Shown: piece by piece, positions 43,398 through 46,554 of the stretch | Numbering within the stretch: the stretch's first letter is position 1 | Layout of the letters: each line of letters begins with the position of its first letter | NCBI RefSeq assembly: GCF_011440375.1 | Contig: NZ_JAAOIR010000001.1 | Location: 744,001 to 808,000 of the forward strand | Reading direction: 5' to 3' | Length of the DNA: 64,000 bases | Origin: Halorubellus sp. JP-L1 | Lineage (GTDB): Archaea; Halobacteriota; Halobacteria; Halobacteriales; Natrialbaceae | Program-made: the position numbers and the translations under genes | Notes under the pieces: model-generated | Seen by the model: only the letters and a program-made list of their open reading frames with translations | Databases searched by the model: none | What the model was told of the DNA's origin: nothing

Positions 43398-43416
43398 CGT
43401 CAGTGGATTGGTCCCA

Positions 43417-43424
43417 GGCCATAA
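43417..43424 (-). promoter_or_regulatory. TATA box of fen1
   Basis: CTTTATGG on the minus strand about 20-27 bases before the fen1 ATG predicts a leaderless transcript. Confidence 0.5.
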
Positions 43425-43528
43425 AGACGACCCGATCTGGGTGGTGGTCAACCGACCTCAAGTCATAGGACCGTAGTTAAGCCGCCCCATTTCCTAGAAA
43501 TATTATGCAACGAGAGAAAAATACACAA

Positions 43529-43540
43529 TTTTATAAATAT
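43529..43540 (+). promoter_or_regulatory. TATA region of the halocin-like gene
   Basis: The spacer from about 43485 to 43575 is far more AT-rich than the rest of the window. tttataaatatt centred 40 bases before the ATG is the best TATA box, with further A/T runs (taaaacttaaatata) next to it. The predicted start is about 15 bases before the ATG. Confidence 0.55.
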
Positions 43541-43574
43541 TAAAACTTAAATATACTAATAGTTTTTTCAATTG

Positions 43575-44348
43575 ATGTCGAATAAGAAAGATGGCACGGT
43601 GAATGCTTCGCGAAGGTCGCTCTTGAAATCAAGTGCTGCCAGCGCCGGTGTCATCGCGGCAAGTAGCATAGCGGTGAGCGCCGGTTCGAGCGAGGACGTC
43701 GAATCGGCACCCAACCTGGCAGATTACATCCGGGATCATGCTTCCGGCGTCCTATCCCATCTTCAGCGAGAGGATACCCTCGAGGAATTCGACGTCGACG
43801 TACATTCTCTCACTAACGAGGAGTGGGTGGCGGCAAATCGGAAGTCGCTAGACGCGTTCGAAGGCAGACAAGGCGTGGTCGTCACGAAACGATTCTCTGG
43901 GGGAGGATTCGTGACCCCGATTCAGGTAACCTTGACAAATGAAGATCGAAGAGGAGAGCTCGTTGTCGTGCCTGAAAAGGACAACACATACTTCATCGAA
44001 CAACCGCTTAAAGCACAAGCGACCATTCAAGTGCAAGACGGTGTAAAAAAGCATCAGACGGAGTACCGGTTCATCTCGGATGAAGAACAGGTGTCCACGA
44101 TGGTAGAATCCCAGCGCGAGAAGGACGTCCAGACGGAGAGAATCGGAACGCAGGAGGCCCGGATCCAGGGTTGCGTCATAGACATCTGTGCCGCTGGAAT
44201 CACTGGTCCTGACAGCGGAACCTGTGTGACCAAAAGGGTTTACTGCCCGGCCTGTACCGTCACCATTAGGAGTGGCTGTGGAAAGGATTGTAGCTTCAAC
44301 TCTGCTTGCACGCCATGGTGGGACCCCTGTGAGAGGTTCGGCTGCTGA
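43575..44348 (+). CDS. Halocin C8-like microhalocin precursor (Tat signal, Cys-rich C-terminus)
   Basis: A 257-aa secreted precursor. Residues 9-37 form a twin-arginine signal (ASRRSLLKSSAASAGVIAAS). Residues 38-199 are a soluble domain with no cysteine. The last 58 residues carry ten cysteines, at 200, 205, 217, 224, 227, 235, 239, 245, 252 and 257, ending CERFGC. Halocin C8 is made from a similar precursor: Tat signal, an immunity domain, then a C-terminal peptide with ten cysteines ending in a Cys. That suggests residues about 190-257 are the mature peptide and 38-190 an immunity/chaperone domain. Codon use (AGA, AGG, AAA, TTG) and GC content are unlike the neighbours. Exact family membership needs a profile search. 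Confidence 0.75.
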   Translation: MSNKKDGTVNASRRSLLKSSAASAGVIAASSIAVSAGSSEDVESAPNLADYIRDHASGVLSHLQREDTLEEFDVDVHSLTNEEWVAANRKSLDAFEGRQGVVVTKRFSGGGFVTPIQVTLTNEDRRGELVVVPEKDNTYFIEQPLKAQATIQVQDGVKKHQTEYRFISDEEQVSTMVESQREKDVQTERIGTQEARIQGCVIDICAAGITGPDSGTCVTKRVYCPACTVTIRSGCGKDCSFNSACTPWWDPCERFGC

Positions 44349-44360
44349 GAATACCTGTCG

Positions 44361-45668
44361 ATGAATCAGTTCGGAATTCTCAGTGTCTTGGTCCTCGTCG
44401 TGATAGCTGGCTGTACGGGGCCAGTGCAAGATACGGAGCGAGTGACAGTCGAATCCGAAAGGACGACCGAGGGATATTCGGAAGTAGATACTGCCACGAC
44501 AGACGGTGTGGATACGACTACGACCGGGGGAGTGGGTACGGAAACGACGGAGCACGAGCCGGGAGATGATGGACCGCTCGGGGTCAATGAAGGTGAACTA
44601 TTCAGTAACGTCAGAGCGCTCCTGTCGGTGGAGGCCACCAGGCCCTCCATCTTGGTGAGTCGGGAAGAGTCGCTCGGACCAGTGCGTGCGACGCCAGATC
44701 GGTTCGCGCGTGTCCTAGGCGTATCTAACGCGACGCGGGAGCAAGCGTCGCCGACGAGAGGACGAGCGAAACGGAATGGAGTGATCGAAGTTACTGTTAC
44801 GGAGGCATCGAGCCAACGCGACGTTCGAAGTCTGCTCGTTCACGAGTACGTACACTCGATTCAGTTCCAACTCGAGTCGTACGCGGCGGTCAGACGAGTC
44901 GGTGTGGAATCGTCGGCGGGTGCCGGCCAAACAGTTACAGAGGGTGCAGCCGTGTACCTGACCCAGCAGTACGCGGCGCAGTACGAAGGGGTCAGGAATC
45001 AGCAGGCGTCAGCCTGTGCGGCGTACGACGCCGGCGCTCCAGCGACGAAGCTCGACCTCAGTCCGTATTGCGTCGGTGCCCGGTACATCGATGACAGAAT
45101 CGATTCGCCAGAGGAGCTTACGGCTGTCTACGAGAGCCCACCGACGACGACGGAACAGATCCGGCACCGACTCGATCCGGGAACCGAACCCGCGCGTCCC
45201 CTGTCGGTCTCCCCCAGAGCAACCGACGAGTGGACGGTTACGAATGCGGGACTGCCGACTGGATTGCGCCGACAGGGAGAGCTCTGGACGTACGCAGTCC
45301 TGACAGCGTACCTATCCGACGAGCGCGCAGACCGTGCTGCAACCGGCTGGGGTAACGACACGGTCGTGAAATACGGGAACGGTTCCGAGACGAACCGGGT
45401 GTGGGTGACTCGATGGGACGACCCAGGCGAAGCGGACGAGTTCTCGTCCGCGATGCAAGCTCACATCGAGATGGCCGAGACGAACGCGACAACCGACGCC
45501 GCGTTCGAACTCGTCCGCGTCAACGAGACAGTCGTCGCGCTCGGCGCTGGCTCTGAGGCGTTCGTCGGCGATGCGTCCATCGTTATGGGTGAGGGAAGGG
45601 TCGTCGTCAGACCGCCGGACACACGAACGAACTCGACGGCTTCAGTCGTCGCACTTCGGACGCCGTAG
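44361..45668 (+). CDS. Secreted lipoprotein with HEYVH zinc-metalloprotease motif
   Basis: A 435-aa lipoprotein. The signal MNQFGILSVLVLVVIAGC has a lipobox cysteine at residue 18, then a Thr-rich linker to about 75. The zinc motif is H161-E162-Y-V-H165 and a third ligand is probably E194 in TVTEGAAVYL, the gluzincin arrangement (HExxH then E about 29 residues on). It lies 12 bases after the halocin-like gene on the same strand, so the two are almost certainly cotranscribed. A role in cleaving or releasing the peptide is inferred from this. The N-terminal part of the gene shares the lower GC of its partner. No named family is recognised. Confidence 0.8.
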   Translation: MNQFGILSVLVLVVIAGCTGPVQDTERVTVESERTTEGYSEVDTATTDGVDTTTTGGVGTETTEHEPGDDGPLGVNEGELFSNVRALLSVEATRPSILVSREESLGPVRATPDRFARVLGVSNATREQASPTRGRAKRNGVIEVTVTEASSQRDVRSLLVHEYVHSIQFQLESYAAVRRVGVESSAGAGQTVTEGAAVYLTQQYAAQYEGVRNQQASACAAYDAGAPATKLDLSPYCVGARYIDDRIDSPEELTAVYESPPTTTEQIRHRLDPGTEPARPLSVSPRATDEWTVTNAGLPTGLRRQGELWTYAVLTAYLSDERADRAATGWGNDTVVKYGNGSETNRVWVTRWDDPGEADEFSSAMQAHIEMAETNATTDAAFELVRVNETVVALGAGSEAFVGDASIVMGEGRVVVRPPDTRTNSTASVVALRTP

Positions 45669-45674
45669 AGGAAC

Positions 45675-46356
45675 TCATTCGTCGGCATTCAGGATTCCAT
45701 CGACTCGGATGTCGGCGTCGACGAGTGCGTCGCAGACGCGCGGGAGGTCGCAGTCGAGGACGTCGCGGGGGTCGAGGCGCGGGTCGAAGGCCGCGTCCGC
45801 GCTCGTCGCGCGGTCGCGCGGCGAGGTAATCTAGCGCGCACCGGGCCTCGTGGACGAACCAGCTCGCGACGTTCGCGCCGGCGTACGCCGCCTGCTGGCC
45901 GGTTCGCGAGTGCGCGTACACGCCCGACCCGTGGAAGACGGGGTGGACGCCGTCGTCGCTGGACTCGGAATCCTAGGTTTGCACGTTGCCGGGGTACTGG
46001 GTGCGTTCGTCCTGCCCGGGTGGGTCGACGATCAGGACGACGACGCCGTGACGGGCGAGTTCGACGCCGGTCAGCTAGTTCTGGCCGTCGGCCTTCGGGA
46101 ACGGGTGATGGCCGCCGCAGAGGACGACGGCGGGGTGCGGGCCGTCGCCGGCGGGGACGTAGCAGTTCGCGGTGACGTGGTAGTCGGGGAGGACCTCGAG
46201 CACAAGGCGTTCGAACGCTTCGAGGGAGTCGAGGTCGCGGGTCGCCGCTCGCTCGCGCTCGCACGCTTCGCTCGCGTGCGAGAGGAGATACTGGCTGAGT
46301 TGGTCGGCGACGTCGTGGTAGCCGTCGACGGCGTCGTCCAACCTCTCGACGGTCAT
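45675..46356 (-). pseudogene. Degraded esterase/alpha-beta-hydrolase gene
   Basis: Starting from MTVERLDDAVDGYHDVADQL the frame reads as an acetylxylan-esterase or dienelactone-hydrolase-like enzyme (CYVPAGDGPHPAVVLCGGHHP, later VVLIVDPPGQDERTQYPGN and YAGANVASWFVHEARCALDY). It is broken by an in-frame TAG after residue 93 and another about 36 codons on. A frameshift near 45800 moves the plausible C-terminus (ending DIRVDGILNADE) to another frame. The nucleophile region is missing. It converges with the lipoprotein gene, six bases away. No single frame is functional. Confidence 0.75.
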
Positions 46357-46510
46357 CGCCGCACCTCCGTCCCGCCCAGCGCGTCGGCGCGACTACGGTG
46401 TGTCGGGCGGCAGATCGGGGCGTGAGTCGCGTCGTCGGTCACGGTCCGAAGCCCACGGGCGACCGGCAAGAAACTCACGGGTGCACGGGGCTCTGTACCT
46501 CGCCCCGCGA

Positions 46511-46520
46511 GAATTATAAA
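46511..46520 (+). promoter_or_regulatory. TATA box of the SDR gene
   Basis: gaattataaa predicts a transcript start near 46540. This favours the ATG at 46555 over the one at 46528 as the start of the next gene. Confidence 0.5.
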
Positions 46521-46554
46521 CAAGATAATGCGTCGTCCGGCCGTAGAGACCCTC

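What the first reader, a model, noticed from the sequence alone, without database searches (positions are those of the whole stretch)
44361..45668. HEYVH lipoprotein cotranscribed with the halocin-like gene: a candidate dedicated maturation protease
The stop of the precursor gene and the ATG of this lipoprotein are 12 bases apart, and the gene shares the lower GC of its partner. H161-E-x-x-H165 and E194 form a gluzincin-type zinc site. The protease that processes C8-type halocins is, as far as I know, not established, so an outer-surface metalloprotease in the same transcript would be a new element of the system. It could instead be a regulator of release or an unrelated surface protease.
Basis: partly seen in the sequence, partly recalled or inferred. 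Interest (0 to 1): 0.75.

Follow-up and report, generated by a model that had tools for sequence, protein, structure and literature searches.

The report
Peptide precursor paired with surface protease
In a salt-loving archaeon, a gene for an exported protein with a cysteine-rich, antibiotic-like tail is followed 12 bases later by a gene for a cell-surface zinc protease; the same pairing recurs in at least four other archaea, so the protease probably acts on that protein, though this is untested.

Summary
Window 44361-45668 encodes a 435-aa lipoprotein (lipobox IAGC18) with H161-E-x-x-H165 and E194, starting 12 bases after a Tat-exported precursor with a 10-Cys tail (43575-44348). It is a distant relative of the haloarchaeal Hvo_1808 family (NF038145, 86.9 bits; cut-off 200). 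Its zinc site is conserved across that wider family, and its predicted fold matches gluzincin peptidases (best VIA Z 9.8, an M1 peptidase).

P0001-like genes occur in 197 of 392 Halobacteriales genomes, mostly beside unrelated genes; C8 halocin loci almost never carry one. The precursor is not a C8 halocin by the curated model but a divergent member of a large precursor family without a Pfam or NCBIfam name.

Even so, four further loci have an intact P0001-like gene beside such a precursor on the same strand (gaps 7, 12, 36, 228 nt), against roughly 0.02-0.2 expected, on separate branches of the tree. Genome-level co-occurrence is not enriched (14 of 31 against 197 of 392), so the protease is not a general requirement. 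Best reading: locally recruited surface metalloproteases acting on the neighbouring precursor, most likely by cutting its linker. Cleavage is inferred, not shown.

The parts
43398..43574 (.). AT-rich intergenic region upstream of the two genes; probable promoter region (not mapped)
   Evidence: 39% GC against 69% for the window
43575..44348 (+). P0002: 257-aa Tat-exported precursor (RRSLLK at 13-18); pro-domain about 47-179, predicted disordered linker about 180-211, Cys-rich tail; 10 Cys from C200 to C257
   Evidence: model mcb64a46611d0; no named family in Pfam or NCBIfam beyond weak Tat-signal hits
44361..45668 (+). P0001: 435-aa predicted lipoprotein, distant Hvo_1808-family relative; gluzincin-like domain about 60-277, C-terminal domain about 278-417 (weak PknH/RseB-like match)
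44841..44855 (+). HEYVH motif (H161-H165)
44940..44942 (+). E194, candidate third zinc ligand (TEG motif)
   Evidence: 44 of 45 residues at this column are E; at least 90% in A1

Best explanation
The two genes form one short operon. The first encodes a Tat-exported precursor whose folded pro-domain is joined by a disordered linker to a disulfide-rich peptide tail. The second encodes a surface-anchored gluzincin zinc protease that acts on that precursor outside the membrane, most likely cutting the linker to release the peptide. Similar lipoproteins have been recruited beside such precursors several times; other precursors are presumably processed in trans or by other proteases. Shown by sequence and comparison: gene order and spacing, export signals, intact zinc site, predicted fold, recurrence of the pairing. 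Inferred: co-transcription, proteolytic activity, the precursor as substrate, the cleavage position, and the antimicrobial role of the tail.
For: A 12-nt gap on the same strand in an accessory insertion. HExxH and E194 conserved and the predicted fold matches gluzincins: M1 peptidase Z 9.8, LTA4 hydrolase Z 8.3, M61 Z 8.2, clostridial collagenases about Z 7. Pairing recurs in G353 (L238, precursor then lipoprotein, 7 nt), G008 (L234, two precursors and two lipoproteins, 12 nt), G074 (L197, 228 nt) and G124 (L196, lipoprotein then precursor, 36 nt). Four loci against about 0.02-0.2 expected. Paired lipoproteins are scattered in the tree, with at least 5 changes of the label forced by well-supported branches, so recruitment looks repeated rather than a single inheritance. 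The precursor model has a confident pro-domain, a linker with pLDDT under 50 and a Cys-rich tail, as expected of a substrate cut at the linker. Archaeal precedent for precursor plus extracellular protease: HalH4/HlyR4 and HFX_0892/HlyR4 (PMC12893001).
Against: Most precursors of this family and almost all C8 halocins have no such neighbour. Genome-level co-occurrence is not enriched, 14 of 31 genomes against 197 of 392. The two archaeal precursors with a tested protease are cut by a serine halolysin, and this genome has several S8 subtilase genes. Adjacency does not give the direction of action. No activity was measured for any family member in the one paper found on Hvo_1808. The expected counts rest on rough density estimates.
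Confidence: 0.45

Rival explanations
1. Immunity: the lipoprotein protects the producer by degrading or binding the mature peptide at its own surface.
For: Surface anchoring suits self-protection. Another lipoprotein family, DUF7537, sits 6 nt downstream of one precursor (L265 in G366) and an unclassified lipoprotein 63 nt upstream of another (L111 in G123), so lipoprotein partners need not be proteases.
Against: An intact zinc site is not needed for binding. In halocin C8 immunity is carried by the same gene (title of Sun et al. 2005, cited in PMC12893001); whether that holds here is unknown. Most precursors have no lipoprotein partner.
Confidence: 0.2
2. General surface protease: P0001 is one of many Hvo_1808-like envelope proteases and its place beside the precursor is incidental, both being carried in accessory DNA.
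For: Relatives in 197 of 392 genomes, mostly beside unrelated genes. Hits to the family model at six further places in this genome besides P0001, three over its cut-off. No genome-level co-occurrence.
Against: Four independent adjacent loci against about 0.02-0.2 expected, same strand, two of them with the same order and 7-12 nt gaps.
Confidence: 0.25
3. Processing in trans by a secreted subtilase (halolysin), as for HalH4 and HFX_0892; P0001 does something else to the precursor or the envelope.
For: Halolysin HlyR4 activates two archaeal precursors (PMC12893001). This genome has at least six strong S8 hits.
Against: None of the S8 hits lies near the operon (window is G000:C1:744001-808000; nearest C1 hits are at 411 kb and 1188 kb). 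Does not explain the recurrent pairing with an HExxH lipoprotein.
Confidence: 0.1

Closest known systems
Hvo_1808 family surface protein (NCBIfam NF038145)
   Same: Haloarchaeal, predicted lipobox, matching core region including the HExxH stretch (profile 121-296)
   Different: 86.9 bits against a cut-off of 200; a different subgroup in the tree from a true equivalog (L125, 555 bits); no tested enzymatic function found in the literature searched
Halocin C8 precursors (TIGR04449)
   Same: Tat signal, pro-region and Cys-rich C-terminal tail; a V[ST]xQ-type motif before the first tail Cys in a minority of both groups (chosen after seeing the sequences)
   Different: No TIGR04449 match; no homology detected beyond the Tat signal; family tails are mostly hydrophilic (median GRAVY -0.37 against 0.78), P0002 itself 0.19
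HalH4/HlyR4 and HFX_0892/HlyR4 protease-precursor systems (PMC12893001)
   Same: An exported archaeal precursor activated by an extracellular protease
   Different: There a secreted serine halolysin, which can come from another strain; here a predicted surface zinc protease encoded next to the precursor, untested
Gluzincin peptidases with solved structures (M1, M61, M9 collagenase, LTA4 hydrolase)
   Same: Predicted fold and HExxH plus distal Glu
   Different: Sequence identity 10-15%; Foldseek itself gave no significant match (best E 0.015); catalytic activity untested

Membership tests
Hvo_1808 family (NF038145 equivalog) | Full-length score over the curated cut-off (200 bits) | tested here: not met
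   86.9 bits, best stretch 144-314
Hvo_1808-like wider group | Shared conserved core: HExxH, E194-G195, Y204, P261, H269, G306-E307, G329-W330, W348 | tested here: met
   Alignment A1 of 40 relatives
Gluzincin-type zinc peptidase | HExxH with a distal Glu ligand on a following helix | tested here: met
   H161/E162/H165 and E194 conserved; helices 152-170 and 186-209 in the model
Gluzincin-type zinc peptidase | Peptidase fold | tested here: inconclusive
   VIA Z up to 9.8 with an M1 peptidase and a run of gluzincins below it, but Foldseek E is not significant
Gluzincin-type zinc peptidase | Zinc-dependent proteolytic activity | not testable with these tools
   Needs biochemistry
Haloarchaeal lipoprotein | Signal peptide with lipobox Cys | tested here: met
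   VVIAGC18 in sequence; C18 conserved in at least 90% of A1; lipid modification itself not testable
Halocin C8 (TIGR04449) | Match to the halocin C8 domain model | tested here: not met
   No hit in the own genome at E 0.01 and none for P0002 in the NCBIfam scan
Halocin C8 (TIGR04449) | Tat-exported precursor with Cys-rich C-terminal peptide | tested here: met
   RRSLLK and 10 Cys from C200 on
Halocin C8 (TIGR04449) | Homologous pro-region | tested here: not met
   Profile comparison without the Tat signal: probability 4%
Halocin | Antagonistic activity against archaea | not testable with these tools
   Needs an inhibition assay
P0002-like precursor family (described here) | Shared pro-domain followed by a Cys-rich tail | tested here: met
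   Profile A2 and alignment A3 of 38 sequences, identity to P0002 18-27%

The most novel reading that the evidence does not exclude
A large haloarchaeal family of exported Cys-rich peptide precursors, not named in Pfam or NCBIfam, is matured at the cell surface by zinc-dependent lipoproteases recruited repeatedly from the Hvo_1808-like family: an archaeal counterpart of dedicated bacteriocin maturation proteases.
Probability: 0.35. Interest if true: 0.8.

Novelty: new variant of a known kind. Interest (0 to 1): 0.6.

Why it matters
The protease that matures halocin C8 was still described as unidentified in 2026 (PMC12893001), and the tested archaeal cases use serine halolysins. A recurrent pair of a Tat-exported Cys-rich precursor and a surface zinc protease gives a concrete candidate enzyme, a candidate substrate and a single-residue control (E162). 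It also points to a broad precursor family without a Pfam or NCBIfam name and to a possible role for Hvo_1808-like proteins, for which the one paper found studied only lipobox processing and localisation.

Tried and rejected
Genome-contig scan with P0002 found no relative and the viral-contig scan with A2 found none; A1 was too diverse for the search for related loci. The single-sequence search with P0002 missed most of its family. The G116 hit contains a stop, no intact ORF was found for it, and it was set aside. Pfam matches of P0001 to DSS1/SEM1 and the PDB SEM1 hits are weak and discounted. The G130 neighbour (L231) was not counted as a pair: it is convergent and has no lipobox, and its E194 position is N. 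G123's lipoprotein is not shown to be DUF7537. Some Cys-rich ORFs near P0001-like genes (L123, L285, L301, L307) were judged spurious by eye. The pro-domain fold search gave no convincing match (best Z 5.4). Background rates for adjacency are estimates from hit densities, not from shuffled whole genomes, and the loci examined were the better-scoring hits, so the probabilities are indicative only. The V[ST]xQ junction motif was chosen after viewing the sequences.

Full report
What is there. The window carries a 257-aa Tat-signal protein (P0002, 43575-44348, +) with ten cysteines from C200 to the end, and 12 bases after its stop a 435-aa predicted lipoprotein (P0001, 44361-45668, +) with lipobox IAGC18, H161-E162-Y-V-H165 and E194. 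Their GC is 54.8% and 61.5% against 68.6% for the window. The same-genus genome G285 has about 0.9 kb at this place where the window has about 4 kb, so the genes lie in an accessory insertion. Co-transcription is inferred from spacing and strand.

What the lipoprotein is. NCBIfam matches it only to NF038145 (Hvo_1808 family), at 86.9 bits against a cut-off of 200; Pfam gives only weak hits, two of them to zinc-protease families. A search of 392 Halobacteriales genomes finds matches at E 1e-6 or better in 197. In 40 aligned relatives H161, E162, H165, Y204, P261, H269, G306, E307, G329, W330 and W348 are invariant and E194 nearly so. The model has mean pLDDT 84.8. Foldseek finds nothing significant, but VIA-align ranks gluzincin peptidases highest: M1 Z 9.8, LTA4 hydrolase 8.3, M61 8.2, clostridial collagenases about 7. 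A zinc-protease fold is therefore likely; activity is untested. Hvo_1808 itself was studied for lipobox processing and localisation only, and its anchoring did not depend on the lipobox Cys (PMC2945643).

What the precursor is. TIGR04449 (halocin C8) does not match it. A profile from P0002 and three relatives draws in a large family, and 38 members were aligned: Tat signal, conserved pro-domain, variable tail with many Cys. The precursors of this set that were scanned gave no named family beyond weak Tat-signal and other sub-threshold hits. Without the Tat signal, profile comparison with C8 precursors gives 4% probability. Family tails are mostly hydrophilic (median GRAVY -0.37) while C8 tails are hydrophobic (0.78); P0002 is between at 0.19. 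The P0002 model is of modest confidence (mean pLDDT 66) but shows a confident pro-domain, a linker under 50 and a low-confidence tail. 'Halocin-like' is thus an analogy of architecture, and antimicrobial action is inferred.

Is the pairing real? In 91 loci with 107 distinct P0001-like ORFs, precursor-like ORFs beside the lipoprotein were found in the window, L197 (G074, 228 nt) and L196 (G124, 36 nt, reversed order, HalC8-like hydrophobic tail). Searching from the precursor side added L238 (G353, 7 nt) and L234 (G008, 12 nt; two precursors, two lipoproteins). With rough density estimates, four loci besides the window compare with 0.02-0.2 expected (Poisson 7e-9 to 6e-5); from the precursor side, two loci against 0.13-0.26 expected (0.008-0.03). 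These are indicative, since the loci were the better-scoring ones and densities were estimated. In the tree the paired lipoproteins need 6 changes of the label, at least 5 forced by supported branches, no more clustered than shuffled labels; that count includes the degenerate G130 neighbour, which lacks the lipobox and E194. Repeated recruitment is the natural reading, with ancient pairing and loss not excluded.

Limits of the link. Of the 47 C8 halocin loci, only one has a clear relative within about 6 kb, an Hvo_1808 equivalog about 1.6 kb from the precursor gene, plus one marginal hit. Most precursors of the P0002 family are not beside such a gene. Genomes with precursors carry P0001-like hits no more often than others, 14 of 31 against 197 of 392 (the lists were compiled by hand). 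The enzyme is thus not a general requirement. Alternatives include immunity, an incidental general protease, and processing in trans by subtilases, of which this genome has several. Another lipoprotein family, DUF7537, lies 6 nt from one precursor.

Known context. A 2026 study states that the protease of HalC8 remains unidentified, while HalH4 and HFX_0892 are activated by the serine halolysin HlyR4 (PMC12893001). No paper on this precursor family was found in the searches made.

Verdict.

Noticed in passing
alignment A3; loci L228-L267: A large haloarchaeal family of Tat-exported precursors with a shared pro-domain and variable Cys-rich tails; no named Pfam or NCBIfam family in those scanned. 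G124 alone has several.
   Followed up: partly
L265:3494-5020: Precursor followed after 6 nt by a DUF7537 lipoprotein (42.2 bits, over the Pfam cut-off), a different lipoprotein partner.
   Followed up: partly
L111:9069-12006: G123 precursor preceded by an unclassified lipoprotein (63 nt) and, divergently, a 313-aa protein with no family hit.
   Followed up: partly
L237:2489-7368: A precursor lies between two large proteins of about 670 aa; the first has PQQ-type beta-propeller matches.
   Followed up: no
window 45669-46527: Between the lipoprotein gene and the SDR gene no clear intact gene was found; a 93-aa minus-strand ORF (46075-46356) looks like a fragment of a broken gene.
   Followed up: no
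L115, L118, L163, L166, L171: Several P0001-like genes, often in tandem, lie downstream of a similar small gene of about 220-230 aa (starts like a methyltransferase), a conserved context without a precursor.
   Followed up: no
(precursors of A3 and C8 loci): A V[ST]xQ-type motif occurs just before the first tail Cys in 7 of 39 P0002-like and 9 of 39 C8 precursors, 1 of 289 and 0 of 379 background windows; chosen post hoc.
   Followed up: partly
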